A stretch of 64,000 bases of DNA from Buxus sempervirens (taxonomy: Eukaryota; Streptophyta; Magnoliopsida; Buxales; Buxaceae). The DNA lies in assembly GCA_947561395.2 (NCBI GenBank), contig OX387182.1, positions 43,331,949 through 43,395,948 on the forward strand, in the 5' to 3' direction. Shown here piece after piece: positions 41,313 to 58,381 of the stretch (positions are counted from its first letter, which is position 1; the number at the start of each line of letters is the position of its first letter). Made by a program: the position numbers and the translations under genes. The notes beneath the pieces were generated by a model that worked only from the letters and a program-made list of their open reading frames with translations, was not told where the DNA came from and did not search any database.

Positions 41313-44300
41313 TGTAATGCCCTGGATCCGGGTTACGTAAAATAACCGTAACTCGTACCCGAAGGTTAATTAAAATTTCACAGGATCAACAAAGTAAGGG
41401 AAAACATGAAATAAAGTAATATAAAGGTTCAAACGCATAATATCAAGGTTCACTAGTTTTCCCAAACATATCCAAAAGTAATACAGGTTCATAATAAAAA
41501 CTCACTAAAGTAAGTAAAACCAACAACTAAGATCTACTCAATAAAGTAATCCTCCTCACGATACTCTGGATAGTCCACCGGATTATCAACCCCCACAGTA
41601 TCGTCCTCGCCTAAATCTTAAAACAAAACAAAACAGTGAGATACGACGATCTCAGCAAGTAGCAATGCATGCACAAGAATACAGTTATAACAATTCTAAA
41701 ACATGCACAAGTTATAATCAATTAAGTTACGATTAATCTCGGTTAATCCGACTAATCTCGGAAATACACCGTCAATTACAAATTCGGAAAAACATTATAT
41801 ATTGGGACTCGTGAAGTTTGTCTATTTTGTGTGGCTAAGCACTAGAGTTCCAGACAATCCAGTCTAACACTGCAACAGCTCAAACATCCAATATCGTCGC
41901 CCTCATGGCGGAAAAACTCAAGTGACCTCACCATCATGGTGGAAACGGAGTTGCTGCAGCACTTCCCTCATGGAAGGCCTCTCCATCATGGAGGAAACGC
42001 ACGAAGGAACTCTAGACTTAAATCCAAACAAAACATACAAATTCCACCTACAACTAGACTGTGGATCCACACTAAGTCTCGTCCTTAATATTTTGATAAA
42101 AATTCTCATATACTGTGCAATTTAACATAAAACCATGCTTTTAATGAAAGAAGACATTTTATAATTAATAATACCAATTTTTTGATTCACATAATCACTA
42201 AAGTCATCAATCATTAAAAATTTACAGCAATTGGTACATACCTTAGAAACACTTACAATTTCATCAAACGGAATCAATTAAACATATTAAGAATCCAAAA
42301 TCAAGAAAATTTTAGATTAGAATTACAAGTTCAGCAATTTCCATGTGAGGTTAAGTCAGTTCTAAAATTCCCAAATGATCACCCTTCTTAGATTAGAATA
42401 TCAAAATTCTGCTAATTCTTTACTAGTTAAGTCTAAGCCCACATACGCCCTAATTCTTTACCAAAACAAGCTCATAACATCTCACCTATATGCTGTAGGA
42501 TATATATATATATTCATGATTTTGCTTCCATCAAACTTATAACAATTTTTCCAGAAAATTCAGAAATGGGAAAAGAATTTAACTATAGCAATAACCACAA
42601 CAAGAGTACACCAATAGTTTGTGCCATACAATATACTTGCATTTACTATCATTAACCACCACAAGACTTCCAAAATCTGATTTATAATAGTAACTGCAGA
42701 AAAATTATAACCTATCTTGAGTAATTTGTTTCCCAACAATTCTATGAAAACATGGTACTATTTTTGGTTTCCTTACAATTCTAGTAAGGACATGTAATAA
42801 GATCAACTAGCCTTGAGCAAAATCTGCTCAAAGAACCCAACAACAAGTTGCTGAAATGTTGACTCATAGGTTGGTTATTTCTCTCATAACAATCATCTAT
42901 AATTTACTACCAATTCATCCTCCATAAGGTTTTCAAAAATCTGAAGGTTAAATTGAACTTAGATGAACATAATCAAAAAGATATAAGAGGTTAAAAAAAA
43001 TTCTGTTTATGGTCCATATTAAATCAGCTGCACCCTACTTATAAATTAAAGCTAAGTTATTTTATAGATTTAAAACCTAGAATTTCCACCTTCAAATCGT
43101 GTCTCAGCACCTGTACAGGATTAATAAGCTTGGAACAAGCTAAAAGGACGTGGTTGCCCACTTCTATGAATTCATTAGAACAAGTTTTAATATGCTAGAA
43201 CAAAGCTTCACTCTAAACACCTACAGCCTTAAGGGTTCTCAACTTTTGCAGTGATGATTTCTCAACATGCAATAACATAACTCCTTCATTATGAACCCAT
43301 AATATACCACACGAAAACTTTCCTACAAGTTCTTAATTATCCCAACAGAAAAACATGCACTAACACTTCCCAACAGAATAACAAGCCATCCCACAGAATA
43401 GCCGTCCAGAAATTTCACTCCATATCACATGTTTCGTGTTCCACATCCTGTTGCATTTCCAACTGAATGCCTTCCCAACAGAATGCCCACTTCTGTAGGT
43501 TCATTGACCTCGGTAAACCAAATTAGTGCTGGGCATTGACCTCACCAGGACAGCAACCATTGACGCCAAGTTAAACCAAATTTACTGAGATGGAACAAGG
43601 CTCCACTTAAAACTCCACACCCGTAAATTTTCCTCAAGACTTCAGGATTGGACGTTAATTTTTAAAAACTGCTGGTAAACATATTTCCATAAGAACTAAA
43701 CCCCATTACTTCAACCAAGCCATTATCACATGAAGGGAAACCAACCAAACAACTCAAATATCCCATACGAATTTTATCTAATTATACAAAGGATAAAACT
43801 CAGATCAACAATATCCTACTAACAAATTTCTGTAAATCTCTGATTTCATCAAATCTGGAAAATCCGAAATTTAACAACACAATGCAAGGTTTTGGAAGAA
43901 CTACTTGCCTCTAGTTTTGCAGGAGTTCGATTTCTGCAAAAACAGCAATGAAATCCAATGCTTTCCACGACCAGCAGTCCGTCACAAAGTGTTTTAAAAC
44001 CTGAGTTTTCTTTTGAACGATTTTCCACTCTAACAGAATAGTATGTCTTCTTCTTTCTTCTCCAACAGCAATGGGCGACTTCCTCTTTCTTCTCCAACAA
44101 ATCTCTCCACTCTTTCTAAATTCTTAGATCTGAGTTGCATCCATTTTTGCCTTCTCCAAAGCTGTAACTGTTGGTAACGCCCGGAGAGAAAGTAAATGTT
44201 ACGATCAGCAAAAACCATACGTTTAAAAAAACTGTTTGTATTCTATATTTGATCAAGTGTAGTGTCCTCCACTATGATACCTACACCAAGTTTACTTACG

Positions 44301-44624
44301 TTCAACAAAATCTCTTTTAACTCCCTCATGATCCACCGGTGCTCCACCACAAAATTTCCTACACCCACTAAAATCAAATACCAACTAATAGCTAACCAAA
44401 TTAATAGCTAATCAAATTAATAGTTAATCCAATTATTAAATAATAACTCATATAACATTTGAAATTGAAACCTAACTTTACTTACTTTAGTTTAGATAAA
44501 TCCAACCATTTAAGAATTTTACCAAATTGCCCTTGGACATTGCTCACCTGAAAACCAACATAGAAATGAAATGATTTTCTAATTATTTTTGAAAATAAAA
44601 TACCCAAAAATTCGGGGTTTTACA
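41313..44624 (-). mobile_element. LTR copy C, 3.3 kb, complete, minus strand
   Basis: The minus strand starts TGTAAAACCCCGAATTTTTG at 44624 and ends GGGCATTACA at 41313. Within it, on the minus strand, are a donor-like AGAG|GCAAGTAG at 43909/43908, a block of CCATGATGG-type repeats at 41900-42000, a hairpin GAGAT-CGTCGT-ATCTC at 41653-41638, a TTTTGTTTTGTTTTAAG|AT acceptor, and the micro-ORF at 41617-41534. No target duplication is seen (AGTAG versus AAAAT), so it may be a recombination product. Its right end joins the receptor kinase inside the signal-peptide region. Confidence 0.75.
41534..41617 (-). other. LTR exon-2 micro-ORF (copy C)
   Basis: Directly after the polypyrimidine tract and AAG acceptor the minus strand reads DLGEDDTVGVDNP, then VDYPEYREEDYFIE and a TAG. 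The core matches copy D (51163-51246) at ten of eleven positions while five codons use different synonymous spellings. There is no ATG in the frame. With the upstream donor, exon 1 would join in phase so that its last G completes the GAT codon, and that joined frame stays open about 22 codons upstream without an ATG. Function unknown. Confidence 0.65.
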
Positions 44625-47080
44625 AAAATTCATCTCTCCGTTGCCATTGATACCATCTCTTATGGCCAGTCTCTCACCGGAAACGAGACCATTGTGTCTA
44701 AAGGTGGCGTCTATGAACTTGGGTTCTTCAAACCAGGTAATTCTCACAACTACTACATAGGAATCTGGTACAAGAAAATTTCAGTTCAATCGGTGGTTTG
44801 GGTAGCTAACAGAGATAAACCTCTCTCTGACCCATCTTCTTCTCAATTTAAAATTTCAGAAGATGGGAACCTTGTTCTATTCAACCAATCCAAATTCCCA
44901 ATTTGGTTGACAAATTTGAGCTCTGATGTCTCTGTTGCTACCAAAGCAGTGCTTCTTGAGTCTGGAAATTTCATTCTGAGGAGTTCATCTACTATCTTTT
45001 GGCAGAGCTTTGATCACCCAACCGATTCATGGTTACCGGGTGCAAATATTATATATCGGAAAGGTAGTAATAAAAGACAGATGTTTATATCATGGAGAAA
45101 TCGAGAAGATCCTGCTCCCGGAATGTACTCCCTGGAGGTGGACCCAAATGGGAGTTATCAGTATTTCCTTGTATGGAATAGGTTTGTAAGATATTCGAGT
45201 AGTGGGATTTGGAATGGGCAGTTCTACAGTGCAATTCCGGAAATGAGGCAAGGTTTGTTCGCCAATTTCAGCTTTGTTACGACCGAGAACGAAAGCTACT
45301 TCACATGGACACCTCGTAATGATTCTGTCATGTGTAGAGTGGTGATGGATGTAAATGGGCAAATGAAGCATATGTTATGGTTGGAGGAGAAGAAAGATTG
45401 GAATTCATTTTGGATTAAACCATTTCAGCAATGCCAGGTCCATGCAATTTGTGGGGCCTTTGGTGTGTGCAATGTGGGATCCGTCTGTCACTGTTTGCAA
45501 GGCTTTGAACCATGGAGTCCAAAAGTTTGGAGCCTAAGCGATTGGTCTGGTGGGTGTATCAGGAAAACACCTATTCAGTGTGAGACTCGTAGTTCAATTG
45601 ATGGGGAGAAACATAGTTTTTTACATATTTCAAACATGAGATTGCCCAAAAATCGACAAGAGCTAGTACTAAGGAATGCCAACGATTGTAAATTGGCTTG
45701 CTTGAACAAATGTTCTTGCAATGCTTATGCATTCAGTGGTGTTCAATGTTTAATATGGGATGGTGATCTCTTAAATCTGGAACAACTCCAAGTTGGAGAC
45801 AGTGATGGTGAAGATCTCTACGTTCGAGTTGCTACTTCAGAGCTTTAGAAATATGGAATTAAGAAAAGGAAATCAACAACTGGAACTATTGTGAGTACGA
45901 TTACTGTGGTTTTATTCTTCTCAGGATTGGTTTTGGTGTTGGTTTGGAAAAGGAAAAGGAGAGCGTCAGTTAAATTTTGGAAGGGAAATGAGGTTTCTTT
46001 GGTTTCCTTTGGATACAAAGACTTGCAAACTGCAACCAACAGCTTTTTAAAAAGTTGGGTAGAGGACGATTTGGTTCTGCGTTTAAGGGGACATTGCCTG
46101 ATTCAACACTCGTAGCAGTTAAAATGCTTGAACATCCTCAACAAGGAGAGAAACAATTCCGAGCTGAAGTTAGCACAATTGGAATGATCCAGTATGTCAA
46201 TCTTGTTCGTCTCCGAGGGTTTTGCTCTGAAAGTAATAAAAGGCTATATGTCTATGACTACATGCCTAATGGATCTTTAGACTCTCATTTGTTTCATCAA
46301 AAGGATTCTAAGATCTTAGAATGGAATATGAGATATCAAATTGCACTTGGTACAGCTCGAGGATTAGCTTATCTCCATGAGAAATGTAGAGATCGTATTA
46401 TTCACTGTGACATAAAGCCTGAGAATATACTTTTGGATGCTGAATTCTACCCCAAGATGGCAGATTTTGGTCTTGCAAAGCTTGTTGGCAGGGAATTTAG
46501 TCGGGTTTTGACAACAATCAGAAGGACCAGAGGCTATCTTGCACCAGAGTGGCTAACTGGCATAGCTATAACTGCAAAAGCTGATGTTTACAGCTATGGA
46601 ATGATGCTCTTTGAAATTATATCAGGAAGGAGAAACTCTCAGCAATATAAGGATGGAAAGGTTGACTTCTTCCCTGTGTGGGCTGCTAGGAACATAAATG
46701 AAGGTGAAGATGTCCTTATCCTCTTGGACCACAGGTTAAAAGGCAATGCTAATGTGGAGGAGCTCACAAGAGCTTGTAGAGTTGCTTGTTGGTGCATCCA
46801 AGGTAATGAGGCTCATAGGCCATCAATGGGCCAGGTGGTACAGATCCTCGAGGGGATGTTGGATGTAAATCTGCCTCCTAACCCTGAATTTCTTCAAATT
46901 CTTGTTGGGAACCATGATAACACAGCCTTCCTCACATAGTCTTCCTCCTAAGAGGGTGAAAAAACATAAAGTGCCCAAAAATCTTTCTAATGTTGGAGGA
47001 CAACAAGCCAAGGATGCCATGAGCAGTTCAAATTCTGGTGGAGATTACACTTCTACAAGCTTATATCTATATTTTTAAAT
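44589..47080 (+). pseudogene. G-type lectin S-receptor-like kinase pseudogene (At2g19130-like)
   Basis: This family acts at the plasma membrane as a receptor kinase. The order is a B-lectin domain (about 44650-45040; SKGGVYELGFFKPG, YYIGIWYK, VVWVANRD), an S-locus glycoprotein domain (SSGIWNGQFYSAIPEMR), an EGF-like cysteine stretch, a PAN domain (CKLACLNKCSCNAYAF), a membrane segment (about 45885-45945; TIVSTITVVLFFSGLVLVLVW) and a kinase (46040-46900). Kinase motifs are kept: GRGRFGSAFKG, VAVK, HCDIKPENILLD, ADFGLAK and GYLAPEW. Defects: the signal peptide is lost at the LTR junction (44624), a TAG stop lies at 45846-45848, a one-base frameshift in the A run near 46050 separates the two halves, and GTRGY is changed to RTRGY. 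The first ATG (44589) lies in the LTR. The normal C-terminal tail appears to continue in another frame after 46939. Confidence 0.92.
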
Positions 47081-48600
47081 TGATCAGTTTTTTTAATTTG
47101 TATGCTTTATGGTAGATTTTTTAGTCTGAGATTACATTATTGTTAAAGAATTTGTACCCCACCTTTCCCTAAACAGATCATCCAGGTTGGTGAGGAGGTG
47201 GATCATGTTAAAAGGGACATAGACTACAAAAGTATGTTTCTAAGCGGACAATCCACCTAAACTCAGTGTAAAAACATATAGCTTCAGATTGTTTCCTAAG
47301 CTTTCATGGCTTTTAGAAACTTATGAAATTTGAGTTCTACAATTCTATGCAGCATAGCATAACTATTACCATGTACCCTCATTATGGTGGATTTTGGTTG
47401 ATTCCAACCATCCAGATTTTAAACATTTTCCTTGCTTCTGCAATGTTAATAAGCTCAAATTAGTCAATTAACTGGCTATTAATGCCATCAGTGGATGATA
47501 ATTTTTGCGTAGTCACAGAGGTTACTGATCAGTTAGATGACATGGATCAGAGGCATGGCACAATCAAACTACCAACAAACAATTATTCATTCTTTTTCTA
47601 GGCTTTGTTTTCATTTTCATTTTAGTAGTTTTATACCAATACTTGTTCCTAGTATTTGGTTCCTACCCCTCAAAGGAGATATGTATCTTAATTACTTCAT
47701 GCTATTATTTGTTTCTCCCATTACCATGGCTTCAAATTTTGTGTTATCTGATATGTTTGCTATAATATTTGTGCTTAGATGGTGGTTCTCTCGGTAGCAT
47801 TTATAAATTATAACACTAAGAAACCTGCAAATGTTGTATTCAAAATTTTTTTCCCTTCTAGATGAATTTTCAGTAGCATTATACCTGCCATGATGGTTCA
47901 TCTGTGTAGCTTACATGTTCATAGGAGTTGTGATTCTAATTTGGTTTGGTGATTTTGCTCAAAGGACTTGAATGTTGGCTTTGACTTCGTAGCCTGGGAT
48001 TTCTATCTACTGATAAGTACATGAAGTTTTTTTTTTTTAAAATTTTAGCAATGATTAGAAATAGCATTCTAACATAGAACCAATTTAAATCTTTTTACTC
48101 CATAGCCTACGGTTTTTTCATTATTCCTTCTACAACCTCTTATGTGCATCTAGCTAGGGTAGCTAGAATGCTGTGTTGTACATATAATAATTGTGCTTTT
48201 ATACTAAATTTTGGTGAAATTAAATATAAAAAAATCGCTATATTGCACATTGTAATCATGAGAGATACGTCAAGTTAAAATATTGTTACATTGTCTTTGA
48301 CACAAAATTACAAAAGTAAACAAAGTAATTTGGTGTAATGAGTCATTGCTAGCATTTTTTTGGTACTTTCAACTAAAAATAAATTACAAAAAAAAAATTA
48401 TCTTTTCAATGAACATTTTAGGGGTATTATTGTATTTTCATCGAAACATATTAGGGGTTTATTATACTTTCACTTAAGCAATAGTTATGAAGCCATCAGA
48501 GATAAGTAGGTAAGGGACAAAGTTTTCTAAACAAGGAAATTCTTTCATGTGTAGCCCCTTTTCTTATCGTTTACTCTTCTTCAATAGAAACCAGATAGCT
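47081..48600. other. Downstream flank of the kinase pseudogene
   Basis: AT-rich DNA without supported genes. The overlapping frames at 47537-47797 and 47692-47901 are short and hydrophobic or featureless and are not called. Confidence 0.5.
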
Positions 48601-51600
48601 TGTAAGATCCGGAAATTTTTAGAAATTTTAATTAAGATTTAAAATTATTGAATAAGAACAAATAGAAAAAAAAAATTTCAATTCAAGCATTTGGTTTGAA
48701 AGGGTTTGGGTAGTTTAGTGGGTTAAGGAGGATTGGTTCAATTTAAGTGAACCGGGTTCAAGTGGTTCATGGTTCAATGGTTTAAAAAAAAAAAAAAAAA
48801 AAAAACAAAAGCAAATGACGATTTGAACATTTTGGGGGTTTTGGTTTGGGGTTGTCAAGGGTTGCGACAAAGGAGAAATCGCCGAGAGAAGAAGGAGACG
48901 AGAACGGAGGAAGAAGAAGGGGGAAAGGAGAAGAAAAGAAGAAGAGGGAAAGAAGAAGAGGGAAGGGGCGTCCTTGGTTATTGCTATTGGGGTTTAACAA
49001 GAAAAAAGAAGAAGAAGGGGCGTTTGTGAGGGTTAGTCGCAGAAGATAAAGAAGAGGAGAAGAAGGGGTGTTCGTTTGGGGGTATAGCCGTAGAAGAAGA
49101 GGAGAAGAGAAAAGGGAAGAAGAAAAGAAAAAGGGAAGAAGAGAAGAGCATTGGGCGACTGGTTCTGTCTGGGCGTGGGATCTGCGAAATCTGTGTAAGT
49201 AGCATGTTTTATCGATCGTTGTTTTTTTCTTTATGTCAGTATGTTTAATCGATTGCTGTTGGTCGATTTATGTTGGTGGATTTCAAAATTTGTTTGATTG
49301 TTATTGGTCGATTGCTGTTGGTCAACTTTGCATGGGTTTGATCGAGTACTATTGGAGTTTTCAATGGATTTCTGTTGTAGTTGAGTTTTGTTAATTTCTA
49401 TTCTGGTTCTATTCGTTATTCCTCTGTTGCAAATTGAAAAGTTCTCCAATCCGAGGTTATTTTATTCCGAAGAAAAATCTGATTTCTATCTGTTATTTTA
49501 CACCGAAATAGAAAATTGGCAGCAACCCCAAGAAACACCACCAGTAGATTTTGATTATTAGGTTCAGATTGAAATTTAGGTTCAGATGTTATTTTTCAGA
49601 CTGTGGTTTGTTTTGTTGGAGATCTCTATTGAGTTCGAGGATATATTAGATGGACAATAGTAATTTGGATGACTTACTTGATATGAGAATTGTTGGTTCC
49701 ATTGGTTGAATGGGCCTTATCCTGCTTAACTGTTAGTTGCTGTTAATGACATTTAGCTGCTTTGAACCTACCAATGATTATGTAGCGATAATTTTAAGAA
49801 ACGGATTTAAATCTACTAATGATCAGGTTGTGGCAAATTACAAGGGAAAGGACCCATTCCTTGTTCAAGATTTTAGCTTATACTTTGGGGCCTAGCAAAA
49901 TTTAGGTAGATTTCTTGCTTTAAGGATTTTAAAAGGGCGATTCAAAAAGGGATTTGAAAGAATTTTGAGGCATGAAAGAGGTAAATAAGTGTTAGGAAAC
50001 TGCTAGGTTTGCATAGAAACAAATTTACAGTTCAAAAGTAGAAACCATTCTGTTATTCGGTCTTAAACCTGTGTAAAATTTCTGTGGCTTGCGAAGGCTA
50101 GTAATCTTCGCGTAAAAATTCATATTAGCAGTCTAAAATTTAGTTTAGGAGGTTGTTAGTTGAAAATGAGTGATAGTAGGTGATTTGGACCTCAAATTTG
50201 GAAATTAAAAATCACCGAAGTGAAGCCGTCAGCGAGTTGGGCTTTCGCGGCTGTTTAAAACCACCTGTAGTAAAACAGCTATAACTTTCTGTAGGAAACT
50301 CCGAATTACGAACCGTTTATTGTGTTGGGAAATAGACTCGTAGATCTTTCCAACGATGTATAGCACGCATACCAGTTCCTCATAGATCAGATCAGATTTA
50401 GAATTCAATTAACTAGTTAGAATCAGATTTTTAGAGTAAATACTGATTTCAAAATAACTATCCAGCTATTCGTGAACGGGTTGATTTGGTAAAACGATTT
50501 GCAATTTATGATTTGGGATCAAGGCTGAGGCTTTGTGTTAGTTGAAAAAGGCAAGGAGCCTAAGGATTGAATGGTCAGTGAACAGCGAGGTTCACTTGGA
50601 TTAAGTTTAATTGGGCAGTTGTTTTTGTACAGGTCTTGTTTAGTAAATTAATTGAATGATTAATTCTTATACGAGTCTAGGCCGCATATAGAGTCGTGGA
50701 TCCACAGTCCGTTTAGATCATGCGTTGGTGTTGGCTTGTCGCGTTAATACCCCGGGCCATTTGCGTACCACCGTGTGGGATCGGTGAGGCCTTCGTGTGG
50801 GATCGATGAGCTGCAGCGTGCCAGCCCATGCGTGGGTGCTCCACTCGTACGATGACCGTGCGCGGTTTCGAAGGCGAGTAGTGAGGTGGCAAACCGGCTA
50901 AGGGTGTTTAACTCGACTTATAGACACGCTAACTCATGAATCTTGCTCACTTTATTTTCTGCAATTGTATTGTTATATGAATTGCTCTTTGACATATGTG
51001 AATTGCTCTTCACCTGATTTGCTGGAATTAATCATATAGTATGTAGCATGTTAATTTATTAATTGAACTGCATAAACTGCCTATTCTATGCATTGTGCAT
51101 TTGTGCTACTTACTGAGACATTAGTCTCACGCGAGTTTTCGTTTTTACCGGTTTTGTTTTCAGATCCCGCGGGTGAGAAGCGTAGCGGGGCTGAAGTAGA
51201 CGATTATCCTGAGTATAGGCCGGAGGACTACTTCTATCCGGGCTAGTGATAGAAAAGGGCACTTTTTGATAATTGTATATGTTTTTTTGAATTGTACATA
51301 TTGTAAACATTGTAAATAAAGAGAGAGAGAGAGTGTGTGTGGGAACTTAGTGGACTTTACTTTCATCTGTAGATGTGATGGTTTAGGTTTTTTTTAAATG
51401 GATATATATAAACTGTGTTTATCAGGTATTTATTTGTGGTTTGAGGGCCTAGCCCATACTCGTATATACAGGCGTTATATAGCAGTTTTTCCGAAAATTT
51501 TAGGATTAGATTATAATTACTTTGGTTAGTTTCTTAAGTTAGTTTTCATCACACTTTGGGCCCTAAAAATAGCCCTCGGGAGCCAGTATAAACCCGACAC

Positions 51601-51626
51601 GTGTTGACCTGGTTCCGGGGTGCTAC
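48601..51626 (+). mobile_element. LTR copy D, 3.0 kb, complete, plus strand
   Basis: Starts TGTAAGATCCGG and ends GGTTCCGGGGTGCTACA. It contains a purine-rich exon-1-like region (48880-49190), a donor CTGT|GTAAGTAG at 49194/49195, a GTGTGGGATCGGTGAGG repeat block near 50770-50815, a hairpin GAGAC-ATTA-GTCTC at 51115-51128, an acceptor TTTTGTTTTCAG|AT at 51163/51164, the micro-ORF, an AATAAA at 51315-51320 and a GA/GT microsatellite. The flanks (TAGCT, TTTCC) do not match, so no target duplication. The implied intron is about 1.97 kb. Confidence 0.75.
51163..51246 (+). other. LTR exon-2 micro-ORF (copy D)
   Basis: After TTTTGTTTTCAG the frame reads DPAGEKRSGAEV, then DDYPEYRPEDYFYPG and a TAG. 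It is followed 69 bases later by a possible AATAAA signal. If spliced from the donor at 49194 the first codon becomes TAT and the frame stays open back to 49050. A TAA at 49047-49049 separates it from an ATG at 48846 in the same frame. I do not know this peptide, but its core is shared with copies C and H. Confidence 0.65.
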
Positions 51627-51679
51627 ATTTCCACTCATTTAATGAAGGATATGATGGTAAAAAGTGAAAACCCTAATTT

Positions 51680-51840
51680 TGAGCAAAAAACATGTATTCG
51701 ACATATCAGGTCGGATATACAAGCATCTATGTGTATCCGACATCATATGTCGGATACATTAAAGCTTGCTTGTATCTGACAACTTATGTCGGATACAAAA
51801 AGATATGCTTGTATCCGACCTGAGTTGTCGGATACAAGGA
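51680..51840. repeat. Array of TATCCGAC / GTCGGATA palindromes
   Basis: Four imperfect inverted repeats follow each other: ATTCGAC...GTCGGATA, GTATCCGACATCATATGTCG, GTATCTGACAACTTATGTCG and GTATCCGACCTGAGTTGTCG. Each is followed by GATAC and separated by AAGC-rich spacers of 15-25 bases. They lie just outside the end of LTR copy D. The design (short palindromes in a row) resembles the CCGAAAT array at 19746-19970 with a different core word. Confidence 0.75.
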
Positions 51841-51909
51841 AAAAGCTTGTTTTCTTAAATTTTGTGTTGGTTTCAAAAGAGATAATGTCTTTTGCCAATT
51901 ATTCATTTT

Positions 51910-52773
51910 TCTGTGCAATTTGGGGTGTCTACAGGCGCCTAGGTGCTCTAGCTGGGCGCTAACCCAATACAATGGGCGCCTACTTGATCCCCTGAGCGCC
52001 CATGTTAAAATCTACATAATTTTAAACGAACGAACGTTCCGAAATTCCATTTTCTTTCAAATCCAACTGCCAAACTCATTTTTCTTCACATCAAACACAC
52101 AAATAACATCCTAAACACTCTAAGATCAAAATCAAACAAGTTTTAAACTCTAAAACCTTCACAATCCAAATCAAACAACAGAAATTACAAAAATCGCAGT
52201 AAATCCCAATAACATGTATATCTCGTTTAAACTTCGATTTCTTCGCTTAGAAATAGTTGGAAAGGTGCTACTTACTTGTCAACGCGCTAACCCAAGCTCG
52301 AATCCCCCTTTCTTCTCCTTCTTCCCCCTGCGCTCGCTCCACCCTTGACGAACAGAAGAGAACCCTCAGGTTCTCTCTTCAAATAACCTATATATATATA
52401 TTTAAGTTTTAATTAGACCACTTAAACCGATTTAATTAAACCAATAAATCAAACCAAACTCAAATCAATTAATCTATTAACCCATTAAACCACTAAATCA
52501 ATTATTCAACTAAACCATTCAACCACTAAGCCCATTAAACAAGCCGAACCCAAATAAAATAATTCCTTTTCTCAAGTAAAATAATCCAACAAAACTGAGC
52601 TCAAATCACTTAACCCAGTTTTACTTGAAATGACCCGATCCAATCGAACCAAACCATTCATTTCTTTTAAAAATTTGATTTATTTAACCTCATCAAATCC
52701 TTTAACCTCTATTTAAATCCATCAATCTCTATTTATTCTTAATTAAAATTTTTTGAAATTCCAGGGTCATACA
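51910..52773 (-). mobile_element. LTR copy E (minus strand), 5' part only
   Basis: The minus strand starts TGTATGACCCTGG at 52773, followed by AAAAAATTTTAATTAAGA as in copy D. A TATA-rich stretch (CTATATATATATAGG) near 52390 precedes an exon-like segment and a donor GACAA|GTAAGTAGCACC at 52275/52274. The 3' part with the acceptor and micro-ORF is missing. A GGGCGCC-rich patch (51930-52000) marks its left part. It lies inverted to copy D. Confidence 0.6.
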
Positions 52774-53045
52774 ATATGTCTGTATATATTGGGAGAGAAC
52801 TTGTGAGCATTTAGTTGCCTTAGTTGTATTTTGTATACACAAAGTTCATACTTCGGAGATTATTATACGGGTGCCATTTTGTTAGATGGAACATTTTATT
52901 CTATGCTTCTTATTGTTTATGTACTCTGATGATTACATTGTAATTGCTCAGATTGATTGTATCAATTAGGTTCTTTTGGGCCCATAAGTAGGGCTCGGGG
53001 ACGGGTTGGTGCCATGATAGGGCAGACCCAGTTCCGGGGCACTAC
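52774..53045 (+). mobile_element. LTR 3'-end fragment F (plus strand)
   Basis: Matches 53790-54046 closely (GTGAGCATTT, GATTATTATA, CATGCTTCTTAT, GATTACATTGTAATTG, CCCATAAGTAGGGCTCGGGG) and ends GTTCCGGGGCACTACA. It is the first of two tandem copies of the same LTR tail. Confidence 0.72.
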
Positions 53046-54046
53046 AATTAGTGTTGGCTTGTTAGCTTAATGACCTTGTCCATAACTGCATTCCACTGAT
53101 GTGGAATCTAGTGAGACCCTCCATACAGACATGGAATCCAGTATGGAGGTGCTACGGCAACCAACCGCCATGGGGAATCGGTGGGATGTTCTTGTGATTC
53201 ACTTTATGATTTGAGGCTTGGATTAGACCATTATTTTGGATTGTCACTTGCTAGCCCATGTGTGGGTGCTCCGCATGCTGAGATGTCCCTAGCTAGGTTT
53301 CTCTCTGTAAGTCGTGTGTAGGTGACACATGGACAGATGTTGTTAATCTAATTTACAGACATGCTAAGCCACAAGTCCTACCAAGACATGCTTGTAGTAT
53401 ATGATTGTACTTATTAAATTGATTTCATTTGCTATCTGATTGAGATGCTTTAATTTGGACTTGGTACTTTATATTTGAGAATGTTAGCTTGATGCCATAA
53501 AATTGCATTAACTATTTCTATTCATTCATATTTGTTGCTTATTGGGACTTTAGTCTCATGCGTGTTTTGTTTTACTGACTTTGCTTTCAGATCCTCCAGG
53601 TGGGTTATGTACTAGGGCAAAGATTGAGGGAGAGCTTGATTATAGGTCTAAGGCTACTACCTCCCATTGTAGGGTCCTCCTCATGATACTTATAGTTTTG
53701 TTTTGGGAATTGTAAATGGAAATGTAGTGATTCATTTTGGACTTATACACCTAAGAGTTACTTTTTGGATAATGAGTTTTGTATATGATTGTACATATGA
53801 GAGAGTGATTGTGAGCATTTGGTTACTCTTTTTTGTTATAAACAGGTATCACATCTTTGAGATTATTATATAGATAACTTTTGTTAGATGGAAATTTTAT
53901 TCCATGCTTCTTATGCTTATATGCACTCTGATGATTACATTGTAATTGCCCTTGATTGTATCAATTAGGTTTTTTGGGCCCATAAGTAGGGCTCGGGGAT
54001 GGATTGGTGCCCCGTATGGGAAGATCTAGTTCCGGGGCGCTGCAAC
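53046..54046 (+). mobile_element. LTR 3' part G (plus strand)
   Basis: Starts within the LTR (GTGTTGGCTTGTTAGC, like 50727 in copy D) and runs through a GGAATC repeat block, a hairpin GGGAC-TTTA-GTCTC at 53544-53557, an acceptor TTTGCTTTCAG|AT at 53590/53591, a degraded micro-ORF (DPPGG..., then LDYRSKATT) and the same tail as fragment F. The period of about 1.0 kb shows a partial tandem duplication inside the LTR, probably by unequal crossing-over. Confidence 0.7.
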
Positions 54047-54730
54047 TATGATCAAGGGATTATTGTGGATTAACTTTGATTTTATGAGCGGCAAAGTATG
54101 TAGTTATGGCTGGAAGGGGCAAATGTAATTAAGAAAAAAAATTTGTGGATGAAATTTGATGTTTTTGCTGTATTCTTGGTTAATAGGGGTATAATAATCA
54201 ATACATTTTTAATATGCACATGATATAACAATCCTAATTTTTGTTTGCAACGTTGTGTTTTTTAAGGTATTACTGATTCAGGGGAGGGTTGTAAAATTTT
54301 CTAAATATATTATAATAATGAAATATTCAAGAGAGTTTATATAACATAACGTTGACATATTCAAAGAGTTTACATAACATAACATCAGTGTTATGGATAG
54401 CAATCTAACACACTGAAGAAAGAAAATATAGTTAAGAAAAAAAAATGAAAGTTGTCAAAAAAAAAAAAATGGTTCTCTCTCGCTCTATGTCTAATGTGAT
54501 CTCTCCAACAATACCAAAGGATTTCAGCACAAGTTTGCAAATTTTTGCATGCCTCTTAAGAATCTAATTAGCCCTTTTTTTTGGTTAAAATTTTTTTTTA
54601 CACAGGTTTATTTATAATCTCATAACCTTCTAATCTTTCTTCCTCTAACACTGATTGTTGTGCACAACTAGAATGCAAGTGGAAGATGATAAATGCATTT
54701 AATAGAAGTATACAAAGTTGTTTATAGCAC

Positions 54731-54740
54731 CTATAAATAG
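54731..54740 (+). promoter_or_regulatory. Orphan TATA box
   Basis: CTATAAATAG preceded by GTTTATAGCAC and followed, about 30 bases later, by a C-rich CACTCCAATTCATCC stretch that would suit a plant transcription start. No open frame follows. It may drive a non-coding transcript or mark a small LTR. Confidence 0.45.
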
Positions 54741-54807
54741 AACACGATCACCTATTCACTCCAATTCATCCAACATACACCTTCTAGAATGAAATAAAAA
54801 AGCCTTG

Positions 54808-55032
54808 AATCCGCTTGTTACAAAGTATTCATGTCTATTACTTATGCAAGCTTCCTAATTATTACTAGGAGTTTACCCAAGTATTACACCAAATAGAAGC
54901 AATTCTCGCCATCTAGTTTTTGCACCCTGAATCCACTTGTTACAACGCATTCACATCTATTACCTCTACAAGCTTCCTAATTATTACAAGGATCCACTAG
55001 ATAGAAGCAATTCTCACCATCTAGTTGTTGCT
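54808..55032 (+). repeat. Direct tandem duplication of about 115 bp
   Basis: 54808-54920 and 54927-55030 share CTTGTTACAA, AAGCTTCCTAATTATTAC, AATAGAAGCAATTCTC or its near match and CCATCTAGTT in order. It sits directly downstream of the orphan TATA box, so both copies would be in its transcript. Confidence 0.8.
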
Positions 55033-55521
55033 TTCCGGCTAATTCTGTAACAAAATATCAAGATGAATTACGAAAAAAATGTCATCAACCACAATCGTCA
55101 AGATTATTAGCTTAAAATCAATCATTGTAATAACTCTTATGGATGGATCTCTGCATTTCAGTAATCTCTTATTAAAGATATTTGTTTTATTAATAAAAAT
55201 CTCTAATCAAAATTACAAAATAGTTGATTAGAGTTATATGGATTTAATGAATTATACATATCAAAGTTAGATATACATTAGAACTTTATTATTGCCATTT
55301 TCATCTCAAATATTTGCTCATCACATAATACTATTAATTAGACATTCCTAGGTTATTAATTATTAAAATTAAAATTAAAATTATTTGAGAAGAAATCTAC
55401 ATACCCAAGGATCTTATTAAAAATATTAAAACTATTTTAGTAGGATTTTATCAACGAAAAATGGTATTTTTTTGAAATTAGATATTCTTCAAAAGATATA
55501 GTATACTTATGAGATTAGTAA

Positions 55522-55683
55522 TCTATATCTATACTACTATTAAAAGCATGAAAAAAAACGTATTAGAGAACGAAAAAATAATTATGAAAAGAATGTTTTG
55601 TTTTTGGTTCAATTCTTCTCGTGATTGTCTATAAATACTTATTAATGGAAGAAATTAATAGTTAGCGATTTTATAAAAATTCT
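55522..55683 (+). mobile_element. Helitron 5' end (plus strand), cut by LTR copy H
   Basis: Starts A|TCTATATCTATACTACTATT then AAAAGCATG, nearly identical to the start at 58710. LTR copy H is inserted 160 bp further on, with target duplication ATTCT. No 3' hairpin and CTAG end was identified. Confidence 0.6.
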
Positions 55684-57916
55684 TGTAAGATCCCAACTCT
55701 TTGATCAATGTTTAAGTTATAATTGTAATATTATAACTAATACAGGGTTTGTGTTGTGAATGTGATCTTTCAGAGGCTTAGATTGGAATTGTGAAGCAGA
55801 GTCCTCAAATTAAGAAGGGACCTTAAGGTGAGTTTCAATTTTAATTTGGATTTTAATTAGAGTGTTGATAAACAATTGATGTTTTGTATATATATGTTGC
55901 TGAAATTTTAATGGCATGAGAGTAAATATAATGAACTAATGGAGAAGGGTAGGGAGGAAATTTGCTTTAAATATTAAGGGTAATTTGGGGAAGGAGGAAA
56001 AAGTGCTATAAACCCATCTAAAGCCAATTCGTATGTAGCATTTTTGGTTCTCTCTCTTCTCCATTTCTTCTCAAGAACAAAACCCTAACCCTAGGAATTG
56101 GCGGCGATTTGTTGTATTCATTTGAAGGATTCCATTCAATGGGAAAGCATGCTAGAAGCTTAAAGTGGAGCTAAGTTGCTGATTTCAAGCTTGGAGAGAA
56201 GAACAATTCTGGAAACTTGAAGAAAACGGTATTTTGATTTCATATTTGGGTTGCTAAGCTAAGAAGAAGGTGATTATAGCTTCAAGGTAAGCAACACCCT
56301 TCTAAGAAAACCTTGATTTAGTTTTCTTGAATTTAAAATGAATTTTCGGATTTCTGTTGCTGATATAGAATTTTGGGTGATAAAATGATCTATTTTGTAT
56401 ATAATTGTGTTCTTTTGTTAGGGATAAGTTAGGGAAACCAAACAGTATGCTTGCTAGTTGTACCATACAAATTTTGACCCCTTGAGAATGCCAATTTGCT
56501 GTAGTTTTGGAGGTTAGAATCTTAACAATTGAATTAGGTTCAGATTTGAGGATTTCGTAGTTTAAGTGCTTTGATTTATATTAGATTGCAATTAAAGATT
56601 TATTTGTGATAATTAGTGATGTTAGGAGGTGATTTGGGACCGATTTGACATCAGGATTTTGCAAGAAAAATCATGGAAGTTAGATGGTTCTCGTCCTAGT
56701 GTAGTAGGACAGCTCGTAACCACCTGTAGTAAAAATTGCTATAACTCTCTCTAGGAAATTTCAAATTTAATTCCGTTTGATGCGTTAGAAACTATACTCG
56801 TAGACCTTTCTATTGGTATATGGCTCACTAGTTGATTCTTCACCAATTGAATCAAGTTTGACACTTTGTAAGGGTCAAAAACCAGATCTGCAGTTTGACT
56901 GCACTTTTAGGAAAAAGTGTATATTAGCCCAATTTTTCATGCGATTAATTTAAGGGTTGCAAATTCATAAATTAAGATTGAAATGAGATTAGTATCATTA
57001 TATGTTGCTGTTAAATGAGTTTGCAATTTATTTTAGATCCATATGACTATAGTATGTTTGCAAATTGAGATAAATGTGATGCTATGTTTGCATAAGAAAG
57101 TATTGCCTGAATTTCTATATGAAATGAATGACTTAAGGTGAAATGTATGGAAGCATGAGGGCATAGGCCCATGATCTGAAAATGAAATGTAAACCATGGG
57201 GCAATGGCCTGGATAATTATGAAGTAGTAGCCTTACGGGCTGTGTTTGAGAAACATAGTTCTGTTGACATGGAAATGATTGTGTGAGAAACCAAATAAAA
57301 TGAAAGGCATAAAATTTTAACTTAAGATGCGGATCCGTATAACTTAAGTAGGTGTGTTTAAATATAATACTGTTGTTTCATCATGTGTGGATTTTATTGA
57401 TTTTGGCTTGAGGTCGAAGTTCTATTGATGTCGGCTGGAGGCCGATGGTTGTACTGAATTCTAGCACTAGGGGGAATCGGTGGCTGATGCCCAAGATTCA
57501 TCTAGATGCCCTATGCTAAGGGGAATCGGCGTTAGGATGCCCAATACTAAGGGGAATCAGGTTGGATGCCTAACCTATATGGGAAACCTATAGAGTTAGA
57601 TGTGGTCATGACGTTTACAATTAAACCACCTAGTTAATACTATAAATGGAATGAGATCAACATGGTTGTTGTTGCAAAGAGTTAGTATATCTTAATGCTT
57701 GTTTCCATTGATTAATGAATGCCCTTGTATGCTTGTGCTAAATGTTATGAATGATATGTAAAGATGTATATTGGCATATTGCATCGGTTTTCGATATATT
57801 GCTATGCATCATGGATTTGAAAAGATATGGCATGAACTGTGGTTTTCAAAAGCATGCATAGTGTTGCTTACTTGGACCCTTCGTCTCATCAAACGTGGTT
57901 TATCGGTTTTGTTTTA

Positions 57917-58012
57917 GATCCATCGACGTCTGGAGCTAAAGCCGATAAGGGGAAGGAGAAAGCTTTGGGATACAGAGAGGAGGACTTCTTCAAGCTTGCT
58001 AGGACTACCTAG
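57917..58012 (+). other. LTR exon-2 micro-ORF (copy H)
   Basis: After TTTTGTTTTAG the frame reads DPSTSGAKADKGKEKAL, then GYREEDFFKLARTT and a TAG. It starts with the same DP as copies D and G, and YREEDFF matches the YR-x-EDYF core of C and D. No ATG is present in the frame. When joined to exon 1 at 56286, the frame meets a TAG only a few codons upstream, so exon 1 of this copy cannot supply the start. Confidence 0.6.
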
Positions 58013-58044
58013 ATAATGTATATCTTATTTTTGATTTATGTAGA

Positions 58045-58069
58045 TAGAGAGAGAGAGAGAGAGAGAGGG
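58045..58069 (+). repeat. (GA)n microsatellite at the LTR 3' region
   Basis: About ten GA units just downstream of the micro-ORF. Copies D and G have shorter GAGAG tracts at the equivalent place, so the tract is part of the LTR layout. Confidence 0.8.
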
Positions 58070-58381
58070 ATGTGAGATGCTTAGATGACCCACTTTTGTA
58101 AAACTATGTATATAACTTTTAATGGGTTCTTTTGATACCTTTTCTTCATGGCTTATACTTTAAATGCTTCTTTTATAATTAGTGTTACTGTACACATATA
58201 GTATATGTTGCACCCACGTTTATCAGGTATTTTACACATTTGGATATCGTCCATTTTCTAGGCATTATATACGCCTTTTGTCCAAAAAAAAAATTTACTA
58301 TCATGTTTATTAGGACCTGGTTAACATCCCTCAGCTGCTCTTAGTCCAAAGGGGCGGGATGTGGCTTAATGGGGTGTTACA

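What the first reader, a model, noticed from the sequence alone, without database searches (positions are those of the whole stretch)
41534..58012. A conserved micro-ORF (core DYPEYR-x-EDYF) carried inside several diverged LTRs
Copies C (41617-41534, minus) and D (51163-51246) encode the same 11-residue core apart from one position, yet the LTRs around it are strongly diverged. In ten conserved codons I count six silent base changes (GAT/GAC, CCT/CCA, AGG/CGT with two, GAC/GAT, TTC/TTT). Copy H keeps YREEDFF with other silent differences. All three end in TAG soon after. This pattern points to selection on a protein, in a place (the LTR) that normally encodes nothing. I know of no description of it. 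Caveat: no frame has its own ATG.
Basis: partly seen in the sequence, partly recalled or inferred. Interest (0 to 1): 0.88.

Follow-up and report, generated by a model that had tools for sequence, protein, structure and literature searches.

The report
Gag tail exon hidden in LTRs
The short conserved reading frame in these plant retrotransposon LTRs is most likely the last coding exon of a spliced Gag protein, so the long terminal repeat, usually thought non-coding, seems to carry a protein tail; no RNA was available to prove the splice.

Summary
The window's own 676 Mb plant genome holds over a thousand first-look candidates per family (150 scored each). Full-length relatives are Ty3/gypsy elements of chromovirus type. 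In families C, D and H the gag/protease boundary carries a phase-1 donor, GGAG|GTAYT. The LTR frame starts at an acceptor of matching phase, so removing protease-pol would give Gag plus a 27-31 residue tail ending ...YRxED[YF][FY]. Support: pN/pS 0.16-0.49 in frame, 0.60-1.99 in wrong frames; 0.34-0.36 in copies chosen by flanking DNA; about 1 just upstream of the acceptor; frame-breaking indels rare inside, common outside; GGAGGTA kept in 32 of 35 gag/protease boundaries while the neighbouring Val codon varies. Prediction: in a fourth family, F, the exon was found in 5 of 6 elements; one element of another type lacked it. Against: no RNA seen, weak donor, no spliced retrocopy, other species not testable.

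The parts
41537..41616 (-). LTR terminal coding exon, copy C (D-LGEDDTVGVDNPVDYPEYREEDYFIE; the first D is a split codon, its G from the upstream exon; stop 41536-41534)
   Evidence: 148 of 150 scored genome copies without stop (my reading of the table)
41637..41654 (-). hairpin upstream of acceptor, TGAGAT-N6-ATCTCA (copy C)
   Evidence: positional conservation only, folding energy not exceptional
41313..44624 (-). LTR of copy C (TGTAAAACCCCG...GGGCATTACA), no internal region beside it, flanking 5-mers differ
51164..51243 (+). LTR terminal coding exon, copy D (D-PAGEKRSGAEVDDYPEYRPEDYFYPG; first D from a split codon; stop 51244-51246)
   Evidence: 150 of 150 scored genome copies without stop (my reading of the table)
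51114..51129 (+). hairpin TGAGAC-ATTA-GTCTCA upstream of acceptor (copy D)
51141..51163 (+). T-rich tract and acceptor GTTTTTACCGGTTTTGTTTTCAG| (copy D)
   Evidence: AG intact in 119 of 123 genome and window copies; L052, L070, L086 and L125 read AA
48601..51627 (+). LTR of copy D (TGTAAGATCC...GGGGTGCTACA), flanking 5-mers differ
   Evidence: same end followed by PBS in genome copies L013, L019 and L026
53590..53712 (+). decayed exon copy E (DPPGGLCTRAKIEGELDYRS..., frame lost in the core)
57918..58009 (+). LTR terminal coding exon, copy H (D-PSTSGAKADKGKEKALGYREEDFFKLARTT; first D from a split codon; stop 58010-58012)
   Evidence: 136 of 150 scored genome copies without stop (my reading of the table)
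55684..58381 (+). solo LTR of copy H, 2698 bp, TSD ATTCT

Best explanation
The conserved frame is the 3' terminal coding exon of a Ty3/gypsy retrotransposon of chromovirus type (Tekay/Del-like), placed inside its LTR. In a full-length transcript a weak donor (GGAG|GTAYY) at the gag/protease boundary is joined, in part of the RNAs, to the acceptor in the 3' LTR. This removes protease, RT and integrase and produces Gag with a 27-31 residue tail and a stop, while unspliced RNA gives Gag-Pol and the genome. Shown: the sequences, matching phase, constraint on exon and on donor, retention in two elements without RT, and the prediction in a fourth family. Inferred: the splice itself, its share of the RNA, the poly(A) site, and that the tail works on Gag (assembly, Gag:Pol ratio, or RNA routing).
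For: (1) Acceptor of phase 1 in C, D, H and F; AG intact in 119 of 123 copies. (2) Phase-1 donor at the same aligned gag/PR column in C, H and D: of 12 GT sites shared by the three gags it has the highest minimum donor score. (3) GGAGGTA intact in 32 of 35 PR starts, GT in 35 of 35, while the preceding Val codon is GTA 16, GTT 10, GTC 4, GTG 3. (4) pN/pS in frame 0.16-0.49, wrong frames 0.60-1.99, bins of one pair left out; flank-DNA sample 0.34-0.36 against 0.63-1.87; the 16 codons before the acceptor 1.05 (D) and 0.87 (C). (5) Non-3n indels over 106 copies: exon 2, upstream 50 nt 51, downstream 100 nt 265. (6) Two D elements without RT keep gag, donor and an unbroken exon in both LTRs (L026/L031/L027 and L019/L032/L020). 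(7) Family F, taken from the PR-start survey, had the exon in 5 of 6 elements.
Against: No RNA or peptide was seen. No reverse-transcribed spliced copy: in the junction search (family D only) none of the 150 scored rows holds the gag part. The donor is weak (4.5-5.6 bits on my own approximate matrix). Another Gly codon near it (ISG) is also nearly invariant GGT (32 of 35), so part of the codon conservation may be shared ancestry. A GT shared by the gags at column 172 scores 3.5-11.7 but in phase 0. Most exon copies, including those of the indel count, were found by protein similarity, which favours low dN and few indels; of 33 copies found by flanking DNA, 2 have a frameshift in the exon. An in-frame ATG does lie upstream in the unspliced frame of D and H. 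F element L175 and one element of another type (L172) did not show the exon. Whether full D elements with RT exist was not examined.
Confidence: 0.85

Rival explanations
1. The exon is translated, but as the tail of another product: spliced from a donor in the leader, further inside gag, or near the end of pol.
For: A donor-like TGAG|GTAA site sits at or just after the pol stop in C, D and F elements. Gag column 172 has a shared GT, phase 0.
Against: The pol-end site lies behind the stop codon, so the LTR exon would then be untranslated. Column 172 is in the wrong phase. Two D elements that lack RT keep donor and exon. Among C, D and H no protein-like match away from the acceptor region was better than about E 0.02. 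The leader and pol were not searched systematically for donors.
Confidence: 0.07
2. A stand-alone micropeptide translated from the unspliced LTR, from an upstream ATG or a non-AUG start.
For: The unspliced frame is open upstream in many copies, and has an in-frame ATG in copy D (25 codons up), copy H (21 codons up), 13 of 30 D loci and 5 of 30 C loci.
Against: The frame closes at the acceptor in window copy C and 5 codons before it in the two F copies checked, without ATG; pN/pS in the 16 codons before the acceptor is 1.05 (D) and 0.87 (C). Non-3n indels are common there, 51 in 50 nt against 2 in the exon.
Confidence: 0.04
3. Conservation at RNA or DNA level only (splicing enhancer, R-region or hairpin function), without translation.
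For: Hairpin and T-rich tract next to it are also kept in C, D and E. The core is purine-rich like an exonic enhancer (recalled).
Against: Changes follow the codon frame: pN/pS far below one only in frame 0. Arg uses CGT, AGG and AGA across families. Few indels break the frame. Hairpin folding is not exceptional.
Confidence: 0.03
4. Chance resemblance.
For: Only three short copies in the window; the block was chosen after reading.
Against: E 1.3e-4 in the window; over a thousand first-look candidates per family in the genome; a fourth family was predicted.
Confidence: 0.01

Closest known systems
Spliced Gag-only RNA of BARE1 (barley, Ty1/copia), PMC3735527 (passages read)
   Same: Single gag-pol ORF; a donor at the end of gag; the spliced RNA encodes only Gag.
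   Different: BARE1 removes 104 nt and gains a stop by frameshift three residues on; here the intron would span all of pol and the last exon lies in the LTR, with a conserved tail.
shGAG of EVD and other Arabidopsis Ty1/copia, PMC8892269 and review PMC12786077; short Gag isoforms in sunflower, PMC7730604 (passages read)
   Same: Alternative splicing makes a short Gag message.
   Different: EVD is Copia and uses premature polyadenylation behind the intron; no conserved LTR-encoded tail is described in the passages seen. In PMC7730604 Tekay members were absent from the expressed set.
copia of Drosophila (as cited in PMC3735527)
   Different: Other superfamily. Where its acceptor lies was not stated in the passage seen.
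Ogre, CRR and Bagy2 spliced transcripts (as cited in PMC3735527, PMC6317226, PMC12786077; passages)
   Same: Plant Ty3/gypsy elements with introns.
   Different: Ogre splices between ORFs to allow the whole polyprotein; CRR removes rt; Bagy2 makes env RNA; none is described there with an LTR coding exon.
CERV of Cer1 (C. elegans Ty3/gypsy), PMC10309623 (passages read)
   Same: A spliced mRNA of a Ty3/gypsy element encodes a protein sharing peptide sequence with Gag.
   [quoted passage not shown] works in genomic RNA export.

Membership tests
Chromovirus, Tekay/Del clade (Ty3/gypsy) | gag-protease-RT-RNaseH-integrase order in one ORF | tested here: met
   L067: one frame of 1335 aa up to the end of the fetched stretch; L065 has a gag-to-RNaseH frame and, one stop later, the integrase frame; L066 is broken; Pfam hits on pieces of L067 and L065
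Chromovirus, Tekay/Del clade (Ty3/gypsy) | Chromodomain at the integrase end | tested here: inconclusive
   PF00385 E 0.0029, 17.9 bits, below its curated cut-off of 25.1
Chromovirus, Tekay/Del clade (Ty3/gypsy) | PBS TGGTATCAGAGC behind the 5' LTR (initiator-Met type, recalled) | tested here: met
   TGGTATCAGAG, with small variants,
Chromovirus, Tekay/Del clade (Ty3/gypsy) | Place in the RT tree | not tested
   no reference RT set at hand; the clade name rests on resemblance recalled
Gag-only expression by alternative splicing | Donor near the end of gag, in frame | tested here: met
   by sequence only:
Gag-only expression by alternative splicing | Acceptor that gives a stop soon after | tested here: met
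   by sequence only: LTR acceptor and stop after 27-31 codons
Gag-only expression by alternative splicing | Spliced RNA observed | not testable with these tools
   no transcriptome; genomic junction search for D without hit
Stand-alone LTR micro-ORF | Own start codon, kept across copies | tested here: not met
   in-frame upstream ATG in window D and H, 13 of 30 D and 5 of 30 C loci; none in window C or the two F copies checked
Stand-alone LTR micro-ORF | Coding constraint upstream of the acceptor | tested here: not met
   pN/pS 1.05 (D, 15 distinct copies) and 0.87 (C, 16) in the 16 codons before it; indels

The most novel reading that the evidence does not exclude
Plant Tekay-like chromoviruses generally use the 3' LTR as a coding terminal exon: one alternative splice from the gag/protease boundary into the LTR makes a distinct tailed Gag, and the conserved YRxED[YF][FY] tail has its own job in particle assembly or RNA sorting. 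Each solo LTR then scatters a ready acceptor-stop exon through plant genomes.
Probability: 0.45. Interest if true: 0.85.

Novelty: new variant of a known kind. Interest (0 to 1): 0.72.

Why it matters
The passages seen here do not say how single-ORF plant chromoviruses make more Gag than Pol. A coding exon in the LTR would answer it for these families, would mean LTRs are not purely regulatory, and is directly testable with long-read RNA. It also gives LTR annotation a protein signature and suggests that solo LTRs may act as ready-made terminal exons for host genes.

Tried and rejected
Stand-alone micro-ORF: rejected, because constraint starts at the acceptor. LTR leader exon (promoter-like stretch and GTAAG at 56287 in H, near 49195 in D, both by eye): set aside, no in-frame ATG seen by eye before them and no cross-copy conservation. 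Hairpin as the main signal: folding not exceptional. Chance: rejected.

Dead ends: three searches of the large protein database and two scans of viral contigs gave nothing usable, 866 candidates shared words with the predicted Gag but none scored, so cross-species tests were not possible. Junction search for a spliced retrocopy: none for D; its C-type twin did not complete. The first tblastn was empty because of a wrong option and was redone. A genome count for the F exon did not complete. Literature: ten paper runs ran (one search was an input error); none of the listings or passages seen describes an LTR terminal coding exon in gypsy elements. The library holds open-licence papers only.

Dropped rows: L070, L086 and L125 (acceptor AG reads AA, frame not parsed) from the dN/dS sets; L114 and the H2/H3-type copies (L115-L121) from the H dN/dS set because of length; L133 and L136 (frameshifts) from the flank-DNA dN/dS; 7 of the 40 flank-DNA places were not examined; L066 gave no match to the donor pattern and was left out of the gag alignment. 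For the 60 copies L070-L129 the parser looked for an AG, which favours intact acceptors. The twelve representatives were chosen by me; other copies deviate from the core. Of the six F elements, donor DNA was seen for three (L165, L166, L167); the other three rest on the protein hit.
Full report
What was checked. Six of the eight base differences between C and D lie in the ten shared codons and all six are silent. A fourth, decayed copy lies at 53590. The copies have one layout: a short hairpin (clear in C, D and E, weak in H), a T-rich tract, AG|AT, then 27 (C), 27 (D) or 31 (H) codons and a stop; E runs on out of frame. Copy H is a solo LTR of 2698 bp with target duplication ATTCT. The LTRs of C and D have clear ends but unequal flanks. 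None of the 24 frames of 100 codons or more in the window read like a gag-pol of this family to me; Pfam was run on 7 of them and showed a kinase, a lectin-type receptor part and a copia RT.

The genome. The window's own genome (676.5 Mb, 247 contigs) could be searched. The exon peptide of D has 1666 first-look candidates, C 2004, H 1268; 150 of each were scored. By my reading of the tables 150, 148 and 136 of these have no stop inside. They were found by protein similarity, so that alone is not evidence of selection.

The element. Several hits come in pairs 4-9 kb apart, the two LTRs of full-length elements. Behind the 5' LTR lies TGGTATCAGAG. C-type element L067 has one gag-pol frame up to the end of the fetched stretch; L065 has one stop in it and L066 is broken. 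Pieces of L067 and L065 match Retrotrans_gag, Ty3_capsid, CCHC, protease, RT, RNase H, integrase and, weakly, chromodomain. Two D-type elements keep gag, have no RT, and carry a second frame with protease and the end of the chromodomain region.

The donor. In C, D and H the gag/protease boundary reads GGA-G|GT-A(C/T)T, phase 1, at one aligned column. The LTR exon begins inside a codon, in the phase needed. The joined products would be ...QLVG-D-LGEDD...DYPEYREEDYFIE (C)...TPDG-D-PAGEK...DYPEYRPEDYFYPG (D) and ...SVVG-D-PSTSG...YREEDFFKLARTT (H). Of 12 GT sites shared by the three gags at one column and phase, this one has the highest minimum donor score (4.5-5.6 bits, my own approximate matrix). 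One other shared site reaches 3.5-11.7 bits but in phase 0.

Constraint on the donor. I fetched 35 of the 150 protease starts. GGAGGTA is intact in 32, and GT in all 35; the next bases are CC 18, CT 10 or TT 7. The Val codon just before is GTA 16, GTT 10, GTC 4, GTG 3 (two copies have Ile). Other Gly codons further on in the same fragments are GGA 34, GGG 25, GGT 6, GGC 1, while the boundary Gly is GGT in 34 of 35. Against this, a Gly six codons on is GGT in 32 of 35, so shared ancestry accounts for part of it.

Constraint on the exon. Pairwise pN/pS in frame is 0.18-0.39 for D (29 distinct exons of 49 copies), 0.16-0.49 for C (37 of 51) and 0.25-0.36 for H (12); the other two frames give 0.60-1.99; H bins with a single pair are left out. 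The closest bins are low too, which shows ascertainment by protein. I therefore searched with 124 bases of DNA upstream of the D acceptor: 40 places scored of 1412 candidates, 33 examined, 31 with an intact frame and 2 with a one-base frameshift. Their pN/pS is 0.34-0.36 in every bin, wrong frames 0.63-1.87. In the 16 codons before the acceptor, same frame, copies without gaps give 1.05 (D, 15 distinct) and 0.87 (C, 16), so the coding signal starts at the acceptor. Non-3n indels over 106 distinct copies of the protein-found sample: exon 2, upstream 50 nt 51, downstream 100 nt 265. Across twelve representatives that I chose from four families, the core reads Y-R-x-E-D-[YF]-[FY] throughout, with Arg as CGT, AGG or AGA; other copies deviate.

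The start codon. The exon holds no ATG. The unspliced frame has one upstream in window copies D (51088) and H (57854), in 13 of 30 D loci and in 5 of 30 C loci; in window copy C the frame closes at the acceptor and in two F copies five codons before it. An own start is thus not a shared feature.

A prediction. Family F (64% identity to the H query, frames up to about 1600 codons) carries the donor in the five copies read (L163-L167). I fetched the place where a 3' LTR should follow; L170 held the exon, and L171 stopped just short of it. Its continuation L173 and, at the offset seen in L170, L174, L176 and L177 held it too; L175 did not: 5 of 6 elements. It reads DPGEDDIPGVEPDADYPEYRGEDFFVE or, in L173, DPSEGDIRGVEPGADYPEYRGEDYFVE. 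Donor DNA was read for three of the six. One element of another type (L172) showed neither PPT nor exon.

How it would work. Splicing of part of the transcripts from the gag/protease boundary into the 3' LTR removes all of pol and ends Gag with the tail; unspliced RNA serves as genome and Gag-Pol message. The weak donor fits partial splicing (inference). Two D elements without RT keep gag, donor and intact exons, which ties the tail to Gag (inference; D elements with RT were not looked for). What the tail does is unknown; because its sequence is kept, more than a stop codon seems needed. My guess is a role in particle assembly or in marking Gag apart from Gag-Pol.

What is known. Gag-only RNAs by splicing are known in copia, BARE1 and EVD, all Ty1/copia, and short Gag isoforms were reported in sunflower; plant gypsy introns are known in Ogre, CRR and Bagy2 (passages in PMC3735527, PMC8892269, PMC12786077, PMC7730604, PMC6317226). 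The review PMC12786077 says plant LTR retrotransposons generally lack introns, naming Ogre and EVD as exceptions. Cer1 of C. elegans makes the regulator CERV from a spliced RNA (passages of PMC10309623). None of the passages seen describes a coding exon in an LTR; the ten literature searches are listed under Tried and rejected. So the kind is known and the variant appears new: a gypsy chromovirus-type element, all of pol as intron, the last exon in the LTR, and a conserved tail.

Limits. No RNA, no other species, and the clade name not tested by a tree. No spliced retrocopy was found for D.

Noticed in passing
L065 near 5309, L066 (minus), L031 near 2886, L032, L033, L034 (minus), L170 near 123: A donor-like TGAG|GTAA(A/C) sits at or just behind the pol stop codon in C, D and F elements. 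If spliced to the same LTR acceptor it would remove the PPT and U3 from a gag-pol message.
   Followed up: partly
window 50161-50364 and 56607-56824: A box inside the LTR (...CTATAACT.TCT.TAGGAAA...ACTCGTAGA.CTTTC...) is conserved between D and H (65% over 218 bp), more than the LTR around it.
   Followed up: partly
L031 1926-2882, L032 1893-2774, L034: D-type elements without RT keep a second frame with a Glu/Ser-rich stretch, protease and the end of the chromodomain region; they may be non-autonomous partners.
   Followed up: partly
G000:C15:31957332-31977546: Four H-type exons at 6.7-kb spacing with three protease starts between them: a head-to-tail array of elements sharing LTRs.
   Followed up: no
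window 44583-46939: G-type lectin S-receptor-like kinase gene whose 5' end meets the antisense LTR of copy C.
   Followed up: no
window 52773-53050: An LTR end (plus) abuts an LTR-start-like stretch on the minus strand, suggesting nested or rearranged LTRs next to copy E.
   Followed up: no
window 50819-51232 and 53249-53658: D and E share about 63% over 432 bp but E has lost the frame inside the core: a decayed copy to compare with constrained ones.
   Followed up: partly
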